The notes beneath the pieces are model-generated. The model had not been told where the DNA came from. It saw only the letters and a program-made list of their open reading frames with translations, and made no database searches. The position numbers and the translations under genes are program-made. Source: Terriglobia bacterium (GTDB lineage Bacteria > Acidobacteriota > Terriglobia > UBA7540). Taken from it: 32,223 bases of DNA. Where the stretch lies: assembly GCA_030037755.1 (NCBI GenBank), contig JASHQD010000244.1, positions 1-32,223 of the forward strand, read 5' to 3'. Shown here one piece after another: positions 3,617-24,323 of the stretch (positions are counted from its first letter, which is position 1; each line of letters begins with the position of its first letter).

Positions 3617-4680
3617 CACTCTGGAAGAAGAACAGCAAACCCGGCACGGGTGGTCAAGGCGCGGCGGCAGGTCGGCCCCGGATCGAGCGCGTGACGCCGC
3701 TCGCGGCCATTTCCGGCGGCGAGATCGCCCTGCGCGGGCACGGCTTCACCGAGAACGGTCATCTGCGTCCGCAGGTCCGTTTCGGCGACCTCGCGGCAAA
3801 TGTGGTGTTCAGCTCGACGAACCACCTGGTGGTACGCGTGCCGGAAGGCGTCACCAGCGGCAACCTGACCGTTGACAACGGCCGCGCCGTGAGCGCGCCG
3901 GTCTCCGTTGCGGTCGGGTTAACGATCGCCGAGGGCCTCCATCCCGTCGCCAATCCCGCGGTGGATGCGGCGGGAAACATCTTCAGCACCTTGAGCGGCG
4001 GACGCGGGCAGAAGACGCCGGTTTCGGTCTTCAAGGTCGACAACAACCGTTCGATGCGGCCGTTCCTGACCGACATCATGAACGCCACCGGCCTGGCCTT
4101 TGACCGCGACGGATTCCTGTACGTTTCCAGCCGGCTCGACGGCGTGGTCCACCAGGTAACCCCCGACGGCCAGCGCGAGACCTATGCCGAGGGCATGGGC
4201 GTCGCCACCGGGCTCGCTTTCGACAGCGACGGCAATCTCTACGTGGGCGATCGCAGCGGCACGATTTTCAAGATCAGTCCGGAGCGGCAGATTTTTGTCT
4301 TTACCACGCTCGAGCCGAGCGTCGCCGCGTACCATCTGGCCTTTGGGCCCGACCGGCACCTCTACGTGACCAGCCCGACCACTTCGAGCTTCGATCAGAT
4401 ATTGCGCGTCTCGCCCGCGGGCGACGTCTCCTGCTTCTATCGGGGCCTCGGACGCCCCCAGGGCTTGACCTTCGACGCCCAGGGAAACCTGTACGTCGCC
4501 GCCAGCCTGGCCGGTAATCGCGGCGTGGTCCGCATGACGCCGCAGGGCCGCGACGCGGAAGTGGTGATCTCGGGGCAGGGTATCGTGGGCTTGGCGTTTA
4601 CGCCGCACCGCTCGCTCGTGGTCGCGACCGGCGACTCGCTGGTGGAGCTGTTTCTGGACGTCGAGGGATTGGGACATTGA
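3613..4680 (+). CDS. IPT/TIG-domain plus NHL/SMP-30-like beta-propeller protein
   Basis: N-terminal IPT/TIG-like segment (ITPLAAISGGEIALRGHGF style) then repeated TGLAFDxDGxLYVxxR propeller blades; start overlaps pgpA end. Confidence 0.75.
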   Translation: MTLWKKNSKPGTGGQGAAAGRPRIERVTPLAAISGGEIALRGHGFTENGHLRPQVRFGDLAANVVFSSTNHLVVRVPEGVTSGNLTVDNGRAVSAPVSVAVGLTIAEGLHPVANPAVDAAGNIFSTLSGGRGQKTPVSVFKVDNNRSMRPFLTDIMNATGLAFDRDGFLYVSSRLDGVVHQVTPDGQRETYAEGMGVATGLAFDSDGNLYVGDRSGTIFKISPERQIFVFTTLEPSVAAYHLAFGPDRHLYVTSPTTSSFDQILRVSPAGDVSCFYRGLGRPQGLTFDAQGNLYVAASLAGNRGVVRMTPQGRDAEVVISGQGIVGLAFTPHRSLVVATGDSLVELFLDVEGLGH

Positions 4681-4814
4681 GAGATTGAGTGATTGAGTCA
4701 TCGAGCGATGGGGTCATTGAGTTCAACGAGGCCATCCGGCGGCTGGGCAAGGGTCATTCACTCAATCGCTCAATCACTCAATGGCTCAATTCTAGCCACT
4801 AGTCACTAGCCACC
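4668..4814. repeat. intergenic 7/8-bp periodic inverted repeat (ATTGAGTG family) filling the gap before cinA
   Basis: ATTGAGTGATTGAG (4684-4697) is exactly reverse-complementary to CTCAATCACTCAAT (4769-4782); followed by GCCACTAGTCACTAGCCACC. Confidence 0.85.
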
Positions 4815-4819
4815 GCCTC

Positions 4820-6055
4820 ATGGACGCCGAAATCATCGCCGTCGGTTCCGAGCTTCTTACCCCTTTCCGGCAGGACACCAATTCGCTTTATCTCACAGGC
4901 AAGCTGAATAGCCTCGGAATCGAGGTGCGGTTCAAGACCATCGTGGGCGACGACCGCGAGCGCCTGGCCGCGTCGCTGCGGCAGGCCATCGAGCGCTCCG
5001 GGCTTGTGATCCTGACCGGCGGGCTCGGCCCCACCGAAGACGACGTCAACCGCGAGGTCGTCGGTGACGTGCTCGATCGCCCCTTGCTCGAGGTGCCGGA
5101 GCTTCGGAAGAGTCTCGAGGAGCGCTGGGCGAAGCTCGGGCGCGCCATGCCCGCCAATAATCTCCGCCAGACGCTGGTGCCGCGGGGCGCGGAGTGGCTG
5201 CCCAACTCGCGAGGTACGGCGCCCGGACTGTGGATCGAGCAGGACGAACGCATCCTCGTGCTGCTGCCGGGTCCGCCGTGGGAACTCGAAGCCATGTTCG
5301 AGGCGGAATGCATACCCCGGCTCGCGAGGCGCGCCGGCGGAACGCGAATCCGCACGCGCACCTACAAGGTGGTCGGATTGCCGGAGTCCGAAGTCGACCG
5401 GCGGATTGCTCCGGCGTTCAAGCAGTACACCAATCCCGAGACCACGATCCTTTCGGTGCTGGGCACGATCGAGGTTCATCTGCGCGCTCACGGATCGAAC
5501 GACGCGGAGGCCGACGCCCTGCTCACGGAACTCGGCGACAAGTTTGAGCTTGCGCTCGGCGACCACATCTTCTCGAGCCGCGGCGAATCGCTCGAGGAAG
5601 TGGTGGGGATGTACCTGGTCATGAAGCAGAAGACCGTGGCCACCGCCGAGAGTTGCACCGGCGGGCTGGTGGCTGAACGCCTGACGCGCGTCCCGGGAAG
5701 CTCGAGCTTCTTCGTTGGCGGCGTGGTCGCTTATAGCAACGATCTGAAGACGCGCCTCGTCGGCGTGCCGGCGGAACTGATCGCCTCCGAGGGCGCGGTG
5801 TCGCAACCGGTGGCGCAGGCGCTGGCGGAGGGTGTTCGACGCCGCACCGGCGCATCCGTCGGCATCGGTATCACCGGCATCGCGGGTCCCAGTGGCGGCA
5901 CGCCGGAGAAGCCTGTGGGATTGGTGTTCATCGCGCTTGCCGATGATCGCTCAACGGAGGTGCGGCGGTTCCAGTTTCCCGGCGACCGCGAACGTATCCG
6001 CACGTGGTCGTCGGTGGCGGCGCTGGAGATGATTCGAAGAAGGGTGAGGGAGTGA
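4820..6055 (+). CDS. cinA: CinA family protein (MoaB/CinA-N domain plus nicotinamide-nucleotide amidase domain)
   Basis: MDAEIIAVGSELLTPFRQDTNS; LTGGLGPTEDDVNRE; C-terminal TVATAESCTGGLVAERLTRVPGSS...GIAGPSGGTPEKPVG. Confidence 0.93.
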   Translation: MDAEIIAVGSELLTPFRQDTNSLYLTGKLNSLGIEVRFKTIVGDDRERLAASLRQAIERSGLVILTGGLGPTEDDVNREVVGDVLDRPLLEVPELRKSLEERWAKLGRAMPANNLRQTLVPRGAEWLPNSRGTAPGLWIEQDERILVLLPGPPWELEAMFEAECIPRLARRAGGTRIRTRTYKVVGLPESEVDRRIAPAFKQYTNPETTILSVLGTIEVHLRAHGSNDAEADALLTELGDKFELALGDHIFSSRGESLEEVVGMYLVMKQKTVATAESCTGGLVAERLTRVPGSSSFFVGGVVAYSNDLKTRLVGVPAELIASEGAVSQPVAQALAEGVRRRTGASVGIGITGIAGPSGGTPEKPVGLVFIALADDRSTEVRRFQFPGDRERIRTWSSVAALEMIRRRVRE

Positions 6056-6072
6056 GAAATCTGCGATCCGGA

Positions 6073-6252
6073 ATCTTGAATCTGGAATCTTGAATCTTGA
6101 ATCTTGAATGGGAAATCGTGAATGGTGAATAGGAAATAGTGAATGGTCAATTGTGAATTGTGATTAGCTGCCGTTCCGCGGAGTAGAGAACACGGGGAAG
6201 GTTCAAAAATCTGGATCATTCACCATTTACAATTCACTATTTACCATTCATC
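6073..6252. repeat. phased heptad array: 13 units ATNNTGA-type (6073-6163) plus 5 inverted-orientation units (6218-6252)
   Basis: Units without indels: ATCTTGA ATCTGGA ATCTTGA x3 ATGGGAA ATCGTGA ATGGTGA ATAGGAA ATAGTGA ATGGTCA ATTGTGA ATTGTGA; then ATTCACC ATTTACA ATTCACT ATTTACC ATTCATC. Confidence 0.9.
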
Positions 6253-7817: not shown

Positions 7818-7965
7818 CGAGGAACTAGGGAATCGGGAGCAGTGAATGGTGGCGCGGCGATCAGGCCGCTGCGGGTCATCTCCCGTTGGCCTTAATGTCC
7901 AGCGGCCCGAAGGCTCGTCTCGACTCAACCGTCCCGGACATGAGTCAACGCCCCGCATCGCTGGC

Positions 7966-8000
7966 ACTCACCATTTACCGTTCACAATTCACCATTTCTA
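7966..8000. repeat. phased heptads ACTCACC ATTTACC GTTCACA ATTCACC ATTTCTA
   Basis: Five in-phase 7-bp units; stop of the ABC gene (7998-8000) is inside the last unit. Confidence 0.8.
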
Positions 8001-9977
8001 CTCCCGGCTTCCGGTCTTGATCTCCTGATCCTTGTACTGAAGCTGGTACAGCTTGAAATAAAGCCCGCGCCGGTCGAGCAGTTCCTGGTGCGTTCCGATT
8101 TCCCGCACGCGGCCCTTGTGCATCACGACGATTTTCGACGCGTTCTGGATCGTGGAGAGCCGGTGCGCGATCACCAGCGCCGTGCGATTTTCAAGCATCC
8201 GGCGCAGCGCCTCGCGGATCAGGTATTCCGTCTGCGGGTCGATGCTCGAGGTGGCCTCGTCGAGAATCAGCACTCGCGGATGATACGCCAGCGCCCGCGC
8301 GAAGCACAGAAGCTGTTTCTGCCCGACTGAAAGTGTCACGCCGCGCTCTTTCACGGGTTCGTCGAATGCAGCCGGGAGATTTTCGATGAATGGCAGCGCG
8401 TTCACTTGCCGCGCGGCCTCGCGAACTTCGTCGTCGCTGATCGGTTTCATTCCGGGCGTGAGGCCCAGCCGGACATTCGAAGCGATGGTGCCCGAGAACA
8501 GGAATGAATCCTGGAGCACCAGGCCGAAGTTACGCCGCAGATCGGCCAGGCGAAGCTGCCGGATGTCGATTCCGTCGAGCAGAATCGCACCTTGCTGTAC
8601 CTCGTAGTAACGCAGCAGCAAGCTGGTGAGTGTCGTCTTTCCTGCGCCCGTGTGGCCGACCACGGCGACGGTCTCGCCGGGCTCGATGGTGAAGTTCACG
8701 TCCTCCACCACGCGGTGCACGCCGTCATAGGCGAACCCGACCTGGCGGAATTCGATCCGCGCGCCCGTGAGCACGCCGTCGCCGTGGCCTTGAGCATGGC
8801 CATTGCCGGCGGCGTGACCATCGCCGGCGAGGCGTCCGTCGTCTGAGGCGACGCCGGCCGCAGCCGTAGCGAGTGCCGGTGCTTCATACCGCGGCAGCGT
8901 CTGGGGCTTTTCGGGATCGGCGATAGTAACAGGCGCGTCGAGCAGCTTGAAAATCCGCTCGGCGCTGGCCATGGCCGCCTGCAGGATATTGTACTTGTCG
9001 CTCAAATCCTGGATCGGCCGGAAAAAGCGCTGCGAGTACTGAATGAACGCGATCGCGGTTCCCACGGTGACGGCGCCGCCCAGGCTCCGCAAGCCGCCGT
9101 AATACAGGATGATGGCCACGGCCGCGACGCCCAGAAATTCGACAGCCGGGAAGAAGAGCCCGTAGGCGAGGATCGAGTCCTTATAAGCTTCCATGTGCAC
9201 GCGATTGATCGCTTCAAACTCGCGGTAGCTCCGGTCCTCGTGATTGAAAAGCTGCAGCACGGCCACGCCGCTCAAATGTTCCTGCAGGTAGGCGTTGATG
9301 CGCGCAATGGCCACGCGAATGCGCCGGTAGCTCTCGCGGACCGCTTTGCGGAACCACATCGTGACGAGCACGATCACCGGCAGCACGGAAAAGGTCAGCA
9401 GAGCGAGCGCCCAATTCACCTTCAGCATGATGGCCACGATGCTGAGCAAGGTGAAGATGTCTCCGAAGATAGCGACCACGCCCGAGGCAAACAAATCGTT
9501 CATCACATCGACGTCCGTGGTGACGCGCGTAACCAGCCGCCCGACGGGATTGCGGTCGTAGAAGCTGAGCTCCAGCCGCTGCAGGTGCCCGAAAATCTGT
9601 TTTCGAAGGTCGTACATCACCTTTTGACCGACGAACTGCATGGCGAAGTCCTGCCCGAATTCGAGCAGGAACGTGAGCACCGCGCTGGGCAGAAAGAGCG
9701 CCAGCGCGATCTGCATGATGCCCACCATAGGATTCGGACTGAGGAAACCGGCCAGGAATTTGGGAATCTGGGCGTGATGAGTGGGATCGAGATACCGGTC
9801 CACCTCCACCTTCATCAGGTAGGGCGGCACCGCCTGCAAGAGGCCGTAAAAGAAGATCGCGATCAGCGCCAGCACCACGACGCGCCAGTACGGGCGCAGA
9901 TAGGTGAGCAGCCGCCGCATCAGGCGGGAGTCGTAGGCCTTGCCTAATACTTCTTCTTCGTGGAAGGCTTCTGCCAT
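7998..9977 (-). CDS. ABC exporter, fused permease/ATPase (catalytic Walker B, variant signature)
   Basis: ABC transmembrane domain; Walker A GHTGAGKTTL; signature LSVGQKQ; Walker B RVLILDEATSSID; Gly/His-rich linker GDGHAAGNGHAQGHGDG. Confidence 0.93.
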   Translation of the reverse strand: MAEAFHEEEVLGKAYDSRLMRRLLTYLRPYWRVVVLALIAIFFYGLLQAVPPYLMKVEVDRYLDPTHHAQIPKFLAGFLSPNPMVGIMQIALALFLPSAVLTFLLEFGQDFAMQFVGQKVMYDLRKQIFGHLQRLELSFYDRNPVGRLVTRVTTDVDVMNDLFASGVVAIFGDIFTLLSIVAIMLKVNWALALLTFSVLPVIVLVTMWFRKAVRESYRRIRVAIARINAYLQEHLSGVAVLQLFNHEDRSYREFEAINRVHMEAYKDSILAYGLFFPAVEFLGVAAVAIILYYGGLRSLGGAVTVGTAIAFIQYSQRFFRPIQDLSDKYNILQAAMASAERIFKLLDAPVTIADPEKPQTLPRYEAPALATAAAGVASDDGRLAGDGHAAGNGHAQGHGDGVLTGARIEFRQVGFAYDGVHRVVEDVNFTIEPGETVAVVGHTGAGKTTLTSLLLRYYEVQQGAILLDGIDIRQLRLADLRRNFGLVLQDSFLFSGTIASNVRLGLTPGMKPISDDEVREAARQVNALPFIENLPAAFDEPVKERGVTLSVGQKQLLCFARALAYHPRVLILDEATSSIDPQTEYLIREALRRMLENRTALVIAHRLSTIQNASKIVVMHKGRVREIGTHQELLDRRGLYFKLYQLQYKDQEIKTGSRE

Positions 9978-10013
9978 TAGTTTTGCCGCCGGACATCCTC
10001 ACTGCGTCGCCAG

Positions 10014-10045
10014 AGTCCGTTGTCCGTTGTCAGTCGTCCGTTGCC
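10014..10045. repeat. left terminal inverted repeat of S23 element (heptad AGTCCGT family)
   Basis: AGTCCGTTGTCCGTTGTCAGTCGTCCGTTGCC; reverse complement matches 10511-10542 at 28 of 32 positions. Confidence 0.85.
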
Positions 10046-10449
10046 TGCGGTTCCTGTCTTGATTCCGCAGCCGGGCCGATGGAACGCAGGTAGGCATTCA
10101 GCTTCGGCGCCAGTTCGTCGATGATCGGCCTTATGTTTGCTACCGCTTCCCTGCTAAGCAAGCCGCGCCGATGCGCCCGCCGCAGCCAGTGTTTCGTCTC
10201 ATTGAGCGAGCCACGGGCGACCCTCACAAAGCGCCGATTGTCCTGGTAGCTGCCCCTGCCAACTCCTTCCGCGATGTTGGCGCCGATGCTGTCGACGGCT
10301 CGTACCAACTGCCGGCCGACGGTGTCTCGTGCAAAATACTCCCACTTGAGTACGACCGCCCAAATCTCGTCGGCGAGCTTCTCCGCTAGTTGGTAGACCT
10401 TCAGCTGCTCGAAATTCGATCGTTGGACCGCCCGGCTCGGCTCTGCCAT
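10030..10449 (-). CDS. four helix bundle protein (23S rRNA intervening sequence protein / S23 family)
   Basis: FEQLKVYQLAEKLADEIW...RQLVRAVDSIGANIAEGVGRGSYQDNRRFVRVARGSLNETKHWLRRA matches the family pattern (FxxLxVWQxA..., SIxANIAEGxGR, GSLxE). Confidence 0.88.
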   Translation of the reverse strand: MAEPSRAVQRSNFEQLKVYQLAEKLADEIWAVVLKWEYFARDTVGRQLVRAVDSIGANIAEGVGRGSYQDNRRFVRVARGSLNETKHWLRRAHRRGLLSREAVANIRPIIDELAPKLNAYLRSIGPAAESRQEPQATDD

Positions 10450-10510
10450 AAGTGCCGCTCAAATACCTGTTCGTGCAGACCATAGTTCGATGGGTAAGCA
10501 ACTAACTACC

Positions 10511-10542
10511 GACAACGGACAACTGACCACGGACAACGGACC
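10511..10542. repeat. right terminal inverted repeat of S23 element
   Basis: GACAACGGACAACTGACCACGGACAACGGACC, 7-bp phased, inverse of the left arm. Confidence 0.85.
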
Positions 10543-10552
10543 AAGGACAAAC

Positions 10553-12304
10553 TCACGCTTCCATTTCGAGCTCCTCTTCAATCAACTGCCTCCGGTACAA
10601 TTCCGCGTAGTACCCCTCGTTCGCGAGCAGTTCGCCGTGCGTCCCCCGCTCGACGATTTCGCCGTCGCGCAGCACCACGATTTCGTCGGCGTTCTGGACC
10701 GTGGACACGCGGTGCGAAATCAGGAGCGTGGTGCGGCCGGCGGCCACGCCCGAGAGTTCCTGCAGGATCTTCTCCTCGGTCCCGGTGTCGACGCTCGAGA
10801 GCGCGTCATCAAGGATTAAAATGCGCGGATCGCGAATCAGCGCGCGGGCGATGGCCGTGCGCTGCTTCTGGCCGCCGGAGAGGGTCAGGCCGCGCTCGCC
10901 GACCATGGTCTCGAATCCTTTCGGGAAGCTCAGAATCTCCGGCAGAATGTTTGCGATAGCGGTGGCGCGCTCGGCCTCGGAGAGCGTCGCCTCGGGCGCG
11001 CCGAACTTGACGTTTTCAAGAATCGATTCACTGAACAGGAACGTCTCTTGCGGCACGAATCCGATGCTGTGCCGCAACTGCGCCAGCGGAATCCGGCGCA
11101 CCGGCACGCCATCGATCAGCAGGCTGCCTTCGGGCGCGTCCCACAAGCGCGGAATCAGCCCGACCAGGGTGGATTTCCCGGCGCCGGTCTCGCCGACAAT
11201 CGCGACCGTACGTCCGGCGGGAATATGCAGGCTGATGTTCTTCAGCACCGGGCGGCCGTTGTACGCGAAGGTCAGGTTGCGGAATTCGATCTCGCCGCGA
11301 ATCGAGGTGATCACATCGGGTGCTGCCGCGCGATCGTCGATATCGGGCTGAGCCGCGAAAATCTGCCACAAGCGCCCCAGCGACGCCAGACCGCGCTGCA
11401 CGAGATTTGTAACCCAGCCCAGCGCGATCATCGGCCAGATCAGGTACATCAGGTAGACGTTGAAGGCGGCGAGCGTGCCCACTGTAATCCGGCCGGCCAG
11501 CACGTGCCGGCCGCCGAACACAAGGATGAGCATGAAGGCGATCGAGAACATCAGGGCGAGGACGGGCCAGAGGAAGCTCGAGATCCAGATCAGCCCTTTG
11601 TTGCGGCGCACCATCTCGCAATTCATGCCGTCGAAAAGCGCCATTTCAGGCTCTTCCTGGCAGAAAGCGCGCACCACGCGGACGCCCGACAGGTTCTCGC
11701 GGACCCGCTCCGTGAGTTCGGAGTAGAGCGCCTGGATGCGCTCGAAGCGATCGTGAATCTTCTGGCCGAAGATCTTGACCAGGACCGAGACGACCGGCAA
11801 CGGGATCAACGCCAGCAACGTCAACTGCCAATCGAGGTGGACCATCAGCGCGATGGTGGCCACACCCACCACGATTGTGCTCGCCGAGTACATGATTCCC
11901 GGTCCGACGAGATTGCGCACGGCGCTGAGATCGTTGGTCAGCTTCGACATCAGGTCGCCCGTGCGCGTTTCGTTGTAATAGCGCTGCGAGAGCTTCTCGA
12001 GATGCGCAAAGAGGTCGTTGCGCAGATCGTACTCGATGTCGCGCGAGATGCCGATCAGGATCCAGCGCATCCAGAACTGGAATACCGCCTTCACCAGCGC
12101 GACACCCAGCATCAGGCCGGCGTAGAAGAGGAGCGTCCGCACGGGCGCCGAGCGGGAGAGTCCGTCGATGCCGGCCTTGATGATCAGCGGCACGATCACG
12201 CCGACCAGTTGTGAGATGGCGAGCGTGAGGAAGCCCGCCACGAAGCGCCTCTTATAGCGGGCGAGATATGGAAAAAGCGGGCTGAGGCGTCGAAGCATGA
12301 GCAA
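10553..12304 (-). CDS. ABC exporter, fused permease/ATPase (degenerate Walker B Asp)
   Basis: ABC transmembrane domain; Walker A GETGAGKSTL; LSGGQKQR; Walker B RILILDDALSSVD. Confidence 0.93.
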   Translation of the reverse strand: MLMLRRLSPLFPYLARYKRRFVAGFLTLAISQLVGVIVPLIIKAGIDGLSRSAPVRTLLFYAGLMLGVALVKAVFQFWMRWILIGISRDIEYDLRNDLFAHLEKLSQRYYNETRTGDLMSKLTNDLSAVRNLVGPGIMYSASTIVVGVATIALMVHLDWQLTLLALIPLPVVSVLVKIFGQKIHDRFERIQALYSELTERVRENLSGVRVVRAFCQEEPEMALFDGMNCEMVRRNKGLIWISSFLWPVLALMFSIAFMLILVFGGRHVLAGRITVGTLAAFNVYLMYLIWPMIALGWVTNLVQRGLASLGRLWQIFAAQPDIDDRAAAPDVITSIRGEIEFRNLTFAYNGRPVLKNISLHIPAGRTVAIVGETGAGKSTLVGLIPRLWDAPEGSLLIDGVPVRRIPLAQLRHSIGFVPQETFLFSESILENVKFGAPEATLSEAERATAIANILPEILSFPKGFETMVGERGLTLSGGQKQRTAIARALIRDPRILILDDALSSVDTGTEEKILQELSGVAAGRTTLLISHRVSTVQNADEIVVLRDGEIVERGTHGELLANEGYYAELYRRQLIEEELEMEA

Positions 12305-24158: not shown

Positions 24159-24198
24159 TTGGAACCTAGCCCGGCAGAGCCGCAACAAAGAGGCTCCA

Positions 24199-24226
24199 AG
24201 TCGACAGTCAACAGTCGACTGTCAAG
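24199..24226. repeat. heptad repeat AGTCGACAGTCAACAGTCGACTGTCAAG
   Basis: 7-bp phased; same GTCGACT/GTCAACT units as at 1092, 1285 and 17281. Confidence 0.8.
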
Positions 24227-24323
24227 AGCTGGAAACTTTCGAGTCGTATGCGCAAAGGGCCAGGGTGAAGTGACAAAAAGGGCGGACCCCTAAGATAGAG
24301 GGCTTGGCGAGGAGAGAATTCTC

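What the first reader, a model, noticed from the sequence alone, without database searches (positions are those of the whole stretch)
10014..10542. IVS-like cassette: S23/four-helix-bundle gene bracketed by ~32-bp heptad inverted repeats, inside an ABC exporter operon
Seen: AGTCCGTTGTCCGTTGTCAGTCGTCCGTTGCC (10014-10045) and GACAACGGACAACTGACCACGGACAACGGACC (10511-10542) pair at 28 of 32 positions and enclose a 139-aa S23-family ORF. Removing the element would leave the two same-strand ABC genes about 45 bp apart. Established: S23/IVP proteins are encoded in intervening sequences of 23S rRNA genes (e.g. Leptospira), whose inverted termini form a stem cut by RNase III. The same layout in a protein-coding intergenic spacer suggests a stand-alone IVS-like element that may spread between operons or process the polycistronic mRNA. 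Its TIRs use the same 7-bp periodic architecture as ORF-less loci here, so the S23 protein could act on that wider repeat family (inference).
Basis: partly seen in the sequence, partly recalled or inferred. Interest (0 to 1): 0.82.

Follow-up and report, generated by a model that had tools for sequence, protein, structure and literature searches.

The report
S23 genes with matching heptad repeats
A small gene for a ring-forming protein sits between two mirror-image arrays of a 7-letter DNA repeat, inserted between two transporter genes; the same arrangement recurs around such genes in about a dozen bacterial phyla, with a repeat that changes in step with the protein, which points to an undescribed mobile element and may explain the 7-letter repeats scattered through many bacterial genomes.

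Summary
In detail: a 139-aa S23/23S_rRNA_IVP gene (PF05635) lies between inverted heptad arrays (28/32 pairs; extended, 38 nt at 84%) between two ABC-exporter genes. It is not a one-off. In the same GTDB family 105 of 118 S23 genes (89%) have such arms, against 10 of 662 other genes (1.5%); 68 of 79 named S23 loci from about 12 phyla have them too. The unit differs between loci but tracks the protein: among S23 pairs at 55-88% identity the arrays are conserved while the DNA between array and gene is at background, also between phyla. Array density follows S23 copy number across 21 genomes (rho 0.77), and this genome's gene-less arrays match its own S23 units (74% against 22-27%). The ABC junction is empty (6-45 bp) in 15 relatives; others hold gene-less hairpins or a different S23 element. 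S23 genes lie in sense within operons (70 vs 5). No transposase or RT lies inside or tracks S23 number; no target-site duplication was found. Best reading: a mobile, REPIN-like/IVS-like element whose pentameric S23 protein recognises its own heptad unit. Recognition and mobility are strongly implied; the chemistry, and RNA versus DNA, are unknown.

The parts
10499..10553 (-). Upstream (5' in S23 sense) heptad array, unit GTCCGTT / GTCAGTT
   Evidence: Period-7 scan; inverted match to 10015-10052
10030..10449 (-). S23 / 23S_rRNA_IVP four-helix-bundle gene, 139 aa
   Evidence: PF05635 E 5.6e-28; AlphaFold2 model pLDDT 88.9 matching 2gsc
10009..10047 (-). Downstream (3' in S23 sense) heptad array; holds the last codons and stop of the S23 ORF
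   Evidence: Period-7 scan; inverted match
10553..12304 (-). Upstream ABC exporter gene of the host operon
   Evidence: ABC_membrane and ABC_tran
7998..9977 (-). Downstream ABC exporter gene of the host operon
   Evidence: ABC_membrane and ABC_tran; orthologues in 36 of 39 family genomes
6059..6252 (.). Gene-less heptad arrays forming an inverted pair (unit TTGTGAA / ATTCACC), a dispersed relative of the element
   Evidence: the same unit flanks an S23 gene in this genome (L011)
24196..24228 (.). Short gene-less palindromic heptad array (GACAGTC)
   Evidence: the same unit flanks the S23 gene in L001
1086..1123 (.). Single gene-less heptad array (ACTGTCA)
7965..7997 (.). Single gene-less heptad array (ATTCACC), just after the end of the downstream ABC gene

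Best explanation
The feature is one copy of a widespread mobile element made of an S23 four-helix-bundle gene between two inverted arrays of a 7-bp unit. The S23 protein is the cognate, unit-specific nucleic-acid-binding protein of the element: its pentameric ring reads the repeated unit, perhaps one heptad per subunit (arms hold a median of about 4.6 heptads). The element inserts into short spacers inside operons, in sense, here just after a stop codon, so that the gene can be expressed by read-through and the transcript can fold into a long hairpin, as in rRNA intervening sequences. Gene-less heptad hairpins scattered through the genome are non-autonomous derivatives or targets served in trans by the same S23 proteins, as REPINs are by RAYTs. 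Shown by sequence: the architecture and its generality, empty and re-occupied sites, the match between unit and protein clade, array density tracking S23 number, sense orientation, purifying selection on S23. Inferred: binding, S23's part in the spread, one heptad per subunit. Unknown: the catalytic step, and whether the substrate is RNA, ssDNA or dsDNA.
For: 105/118 S23 genes with inverted heptad arms vs 10/662 other genes; 68 of 79 named S23 loci from about 12 phyla reach the 95% level of cross-locus pairs. Unit tracks protein identity (Mantel p 0.001); arrays conserved while the array-gene spacer is at background, also between phyla (49% vs 2%, spacer 3%). Array density vs S23 per Mb rho 0.77, p 4e-5. 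Gene-less arrays match the genome's own S23 units, 74% vs 22-27%. ABC junction empty in 15 of 30 genomes, re-occupied by other units or another S23 in others. Sense orientation 70:5. Purifying selection: 64% of differences on third codon positions. Fold equals the pentameric 2gsc.
Against: No nuclease, transposase or RT in the element; RVT_1 absent from this assembly, and neither RVT_1 nor Y1_Tnp tracks S23 number. No target-site duplication. In G012 the gene-less arrays fit G000's S23 set as well as its own. Some heptad units (AGATCGT) have no S23 partner in the assemblies searched. About 11% of S23 genes of the family lack clear arms. No binding data.
Confidence: 0.62

Rival explanations
1. 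RNA-level IVS: the inverted arrays matter only as a hairpin in the polycistronic mRNA, cut by RNase III as in 23S rRNA intervening sequences; S23 binds or shields the hairpin or the cut RNA, and the element is tolerated because it is removed from the transcript.
For: Same protein family and layout as rRNA IVS (PMC4990558: 28-bp terminal stem, RNase III cut); sense orientation 70:5; the transcript folds with the arms paired, z -4.1.
Against: G-U-compatible mismatches not significantly favoured (126 vs 98, p 0.07); the order of heptad variants is only weakly mirrored between the arms; gene-less hairpins show no significant sense bias (16 vs 9).
Confidence: 0.2
2. Heptad arrays are ordinary slippage repeats of the host and S23 genes are neutral passengers that happen to lie in repeat-rich spacers.
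For: Heptads are also abundant away from S23 genes; bacterial heptanucleotide repeats have been ascribed to polymerase slippage (Mrazek, as cited in PMC4679880).
Against: Other genes of the same genomes have such arms in only 1.5%; the unit tracks the protein and not the spacer, even between phyla; arms are inverted to each other, not direct; density tracks S23 number.
Confidence: 0.04
3. Host-domesticated regulator: S23 binds heptad hairpins in mRNA or DNA to control stability, termination or translation of many operons (a regulon), and mobility is incidental.
For: Hundreds of gene-less hairpins per genome matching own S23 units in G000; S23 under purifying selection; hairpins rare between divergent genes, 3 of 43 classed pairs.
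Against: S23 number ranges from 0 to 23 within one family; broken S23 copies are common; the same junction is empty or differently occupied in relatives.
Confidence: 0.1

Closest known systems
23S rRNA intervening sequences (IVS) of Coxiella, Leptospira and others
   Same: S23 ORF between inverted termini that form a long stem; sense orientation within a transcribed unit; suspected selfish element (PMC4990558)
   Different: Here in an operon spacer, not in rRNA; termini are heptad arrays with a clade-specific unit; many gene-less relatives; RNase III cut untested
REPIN-RAYT system
   Same: Dispersed intergenic hairpins of two inverted repeats plus a cognate gene flanked by the same repeats (PMC3116915)
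   Different: The gene is S23, not a Y1 tyrosine transposase; repeats are heptad arrays; Y1_Tnp does not track S23 number
Bacterial heptanucleotide repeats: cyanobacterial STRR, Beggiatoaceae TAACTGA (PMC4679880), Xanthomonas GGGNATC (PMC4692102)
   Same: Intergenic arrays of a 7-bp unit; inverted pairs noted in Xanthomonas; TAACTGA is the reverse complement of the AGTTATC unit seen around S23 genes here
   Different: Never linked to S23 in those papers; here the unit is tied to a specific S23 clade
Avd of diversity-generating retroelements
   Same: Same four-helix-bundle fold (4dwl, DGR ribonucleoprotein 8ub7); an RNA/RT partner protein
   Different: No RT in this assembly; an S23-like gene close to an RT in G014 (L369) has no heptad arrays

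Membership tests
23S rRNA IVS | S23/IVP ORF | tested here: met
   PF05635 97.7 bits, cut-off 33.8
23S rRNA IVS | Inverted termini forming a stem | tested here: met
   38 nt at 84%; arms pair in the fold
23S rRNA IVS | Location inside a 23S rRNA gene | tested here: not met
   Between two ABC genes; no Rfam family in the window
23S rRNA IVS | Excision by RNase III | not testable with these tools
   Needs RNA-end mapping
REPIN-RAYT | Dispersed inverted-repeat hairpins | tested here: met
   54 gene-less pairs, median 112 bp
REPIN-RAYT | Cognate Y1 tyrosine transposase flanked by the repeats | tested here: not met
   Gene inside is S23; the Y1 genes of this genome have no heptads nearby; no correlation with S23 number
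IS element / MITE | Transposase in the element or its full-length relative | tested here: not met
   Only S23 lies between the arms
IS element / MITE | Target-site duplication | tested here: not met
   Longest direct match in the outer flanks 4.0 vs 3.94 in cross pairs; array ends are fuzzy, so a short one could be missed
Diversity-generating retroelement (Avd) | Reverse transcriptase with template and variable repeats nearby | tested here: not met
   No RVT_1 in the assembly, which is 86% complete
Diversity-generating retroelement (Avd) | Avd-like four-helix-bundle fold | tested here: met
   4dwl TM-score (target) 0.76-0.82
Ordinary simple-sequence (slippage) repeat | No systematic gene partner | tested here: not met
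   89% of S23 genes vs 1.5% of other genes bracketed

The most novel reading that the evidence does not exclude
A new class of mobile element, found across about a dozen bacterial phyla, in which a pentameric S23 ring protein without any known catalytic domain reads a clade-specific heptad code, one heptad per subunit (as TRAP reads its spaced triplets), and spreads both its own gene and many gene-less heptad hairpins; this would be the common origin of bacterial heptanucleotide repeats (cyanobacterial STRR, TAACTGA, GGGNATC) and of rRNA intervening sequences.
Probability: 0.35. Interest if true: 0.95.

Novelty: categorically new. Interest (0 to 1): 0.87.

Why it matters
Stand-alone S23 or 'four helix bundle' genes are common and unexplained in environmental bacteria, and heptanucleotide repeats have been reported piecemeal, from the STRRs of cyanobacteria on, without a cause. 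The data tie the two together with a test that can fail: each S23 should bind its own heptad unit and not that of another clade. If true, it gives S23/Avd-fold proteins a sequence-reading role, explains a large class of bacterial intergenic repeats, and offers a natural series of matched protein-repeat pairs from which a recognition code could be read.

Tried and rejected
RVT_1 or Y1_Tnp as catalytic partner: no correlation with S23 number. Target-site duplication: none above cross pairs. Exact inverse-copy arms: heptad-order shuffles score nearly as well (21.0 vs 19.6). RNA-pairing signature by G-U excess: p 0.07. Sense bias of gene-less hairpins: not significant. S23 partner for the AGATCGT hairpins in G014: not found. 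Rfam: no family at the window or in 19 other loci. Other genes between arms: one 873-bp case is an ABC ATPase between what look like two separate hairpins; one 497-bp case holds no recognisable gene. Specificity residues: a weak exploratory signal around residues 63-68, the tip of helices 2 and 3 (r 0.12-0.22), not relied upon. Literature: ten full-text searches found no paper linking S23 with heptad repeats; most subscription papers are not held.

Full report
Observation. The window is one contig (C40) of a 6.7-Mb, 86%-complete assembly. Between two minus-strand ABC-exporter genes (10553-12304 and 7998-9977) lies a 139-aa minus-strand ORF (10030-10449) that is a clear member of PF05635, 23S_rRNA_IVP, and TIGR02436. 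The quoted inverted repeats are there, pair at 28 of 32 positions and extend to 38 nt at 84%. Both arms have a 7-bp period. The ORF runs 16 bp into the downstream array, which supplies its stop codon, so 'encloses' is not quite exact.

It is general. The same genome has 17 PF05635 matches, and nearly all have heptad arrays on one or both sides, inverted to each other, with a different unit at each locus. PF05635 occurs in 37 of 39 genomes of the GTDB family, with 0 to 23 matches each. For 118 S23 genes with both flanks, the best inverted match between upstream and downstream 250 bp has median 19, against 8.5 for flanks paired across loci and 9.0 for random windows. At a threshold of 14, 105 of 118 S23 genes pass, against 3.6% of cross pairs and 10 of 662 other genes of these genomes. 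The best autocorrelation lag is 7 or 14 in 97 of 105 arms; the upstream arm in gene sense is purine-rich, and its consensus holds AG in 78% and CT in 17%. Y1 transposase genes of the same genome have no heptads near them.

It crosses phyla. A scan of GTDB genomes with a 14-sequence S23 alignment returned 80 named loci from Acidobacteria, Cyanobacteria, Planctomycetes, Chloroflexi, Verrucomicrobia, Bacteroidetes, Proteobacteria, Omnitrophota, Gemmatimonadetes and others. Of the 79 with usable flanks, 68 reach the 95% level of cross pairs (12.5); the period is mostly 7, but 8 in some Chloroflexi and 10-11 in several Bacteroidetes. The scan was limited to one conserved motif and to the best 80 loci, so it leans towards the window's own clade.

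The unit follows the protein. Within the family, pairs of S23 proteins below 50% identity share 6 or more of 7 unit positions in 1-4% of cases, pairs at 70-85% in 56%; Mantel p 0.001 with pairs above 70% excluded. Shared descent of the whole element does not explain this: in pairs at 55-65, 65-75 and 75-88% identity the upstream arrays score 8.3, 11.1 and 14.2 (background 4.4), while the DNA between array and gene scores 5.0-5.3, its background. Between phyla, pairs above 65% identity share arms in 49% (2% for distant pairs) and spacers in 3%. The window's clade uses GTC[C/A][G/T]T-type units in Chloracidobacterium, Planctomycetes, cyanobacteria and an Anaerolineae MAG. The nearest S23 in the same genome (L009, 68% identical) has GTCCTTN/GTCATTN. 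S23 coding sequences are under purifying selection: 64% of differences fall on third codon positions.

Gene-less copies. In 288 kb there are 120 period-7 arrays against 1-20 for other periods from 4 to 12. Inverted gene-less pairs have a median length of 112 bp. Across 21 genomes, array density on contigs chosen for the ABC gene follows S23 per Mb (Spearman 0.77, p 4e-5); period 9 does not. Gene-less arrays of the window's genome match its own S23 arms in 74%, and those of two other genomes in 22 and 27%; with equal set sizes 60 against 21 and 24%; reversed arms give 26%. G018 agrees (70 against 42 and 60%); G012 does not clearly (49% own, 56% G000, 25% G018). Some units have no S23 in the assemblies searched.

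Insertion history of this site. Orthologues of the downstream ABC gene were found in 36 of 39 genomes; in 30 of them the junction was read. In 15 the site is empty: the ABC genes are 6-45 bp apart with no repeat. The same-genus genome G014 has a 141-bp gene-less hairpin with unit AGATCGT; G034, G025, G001 and G019 have gene-less heptad arrays of other units; G003 and G018 have inverted repeats of roughly 8-bp period. G016 has a 574-bp S23 element whose S23 is 37% identical to the window's and whose unit is AAGTCAG; an 80%-identical relative of that S23 with the same unit lies beside the ABC gene in G012. So the spacer was entered several times by different members, and the empty form is common. 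No target-site duplication was detected.

Orientation and RNA. Among S23 genes with co-directional neighbours, 70 are in sense with both and 5 against both (crude ORF calling). Gene-less hairpins show 16 against 9, not significant. The minus-strand transcript folds with the arms paired, z -4.1. An excess of G-U-compatible mismatches is not significant (p 0.07). The data fit expression by read-through, as in rRNA IVS, but do not decide between RNA and DNA as the substrate.

Protein. The AlphaFold2 model (pLDDT 88.9) matches X. campestris XCC0516 (2gsc) and B. thetaiotaomicron BT_0352 (2rld), both deposited as five chains, and more weakly the Avd protein of DGRs, free and in the RT ribonucleoprotein. 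[quoted passage not shown]). Arms hold a median of 4.6-4.7 heptads, mostly with 3-5 invariant columns. A ring reading one heptad per subunit, as TRAP reads its spaced triplets, is an inference from these numbers and from general knowledge of TRAP; it was not tested.

Comparison with what is known. In layout it is an IVS outside rRNA; in population structure it resembles REPIN-RAYT; in each case a defining feature fails (no rRNA location; no Y1 transposase). RVT_1 is absent from this assembly, and neither RVT_1 nor Y1_Tnp tracks S23 number. The units coincide in kind with published heptanucleotide repeats: TAACTGA in Beggiatoaceae (PMC4679880) is the reverse complement of the AGTTATC unit, and Xanthomonas GGGNATC repeats with 70-75 inverted pairs per genome (PMC4692102) resemble the GGGATTC and GGGACCG arms of the two S23 genes of X. 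codiaei. Neither paper mentions S23. That S23 is the partner of these published repeats is therefore a prediction for those strains, not a result.

Verdict. Architecture, generality, unit-protein matching and site occupancy are established here by sequence. Specific recognition by S23 is the most economical cause (about 0.75). That S23 is needed for spread is likely but unproven (about 0.45-0.5). The chemistry is unknown. Novelty is judged against the open-access literature that could be searched; the class 'categorically new' rests on every tested known kind failing at least one defining feature, and a reader who counts any S23-plus-inverted-repeat unit as an IVS would call it a new variant.

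Noticed in passing
L369 (G014:C436, about 4221-5345): An RVT_1 gene lies next to a weak S23-like match without heptad arrays; possibly a DGR with its Avd, which would make the Avd branch free of heptad termini.
   Followed up: partly
L078 16056-16637, L082 11170-11367, L096 junction: Hairpins of unit AGATCGT/GTTCGTG are frequent in this genus but no S23 with that unit was found in G000 or G014; the unit is a near variant of GTCCGTT.
   Followed up: partly
L110 and L112 junctions; L280, L281, L288, L290; L291, L294-L297: Some lineages use periods other than 7: about 8 bp in some Chloroflexi and at two ABC junctions, 10-11 bp in Bacteroidetes.
   Followed up: no
L013/L016, L015, L341, L342, L344-L346: Broken or frameshifted S23 genes that still carry heptad arrays, in this genome and in a Nostoc genome.
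   Followed up: no
L332: A Thiodictyon genome has a very long heptad array (about 196 bp, some 28 units) beside an S23 gene, far beyond the usual 4-6 units.
   Followed up: no
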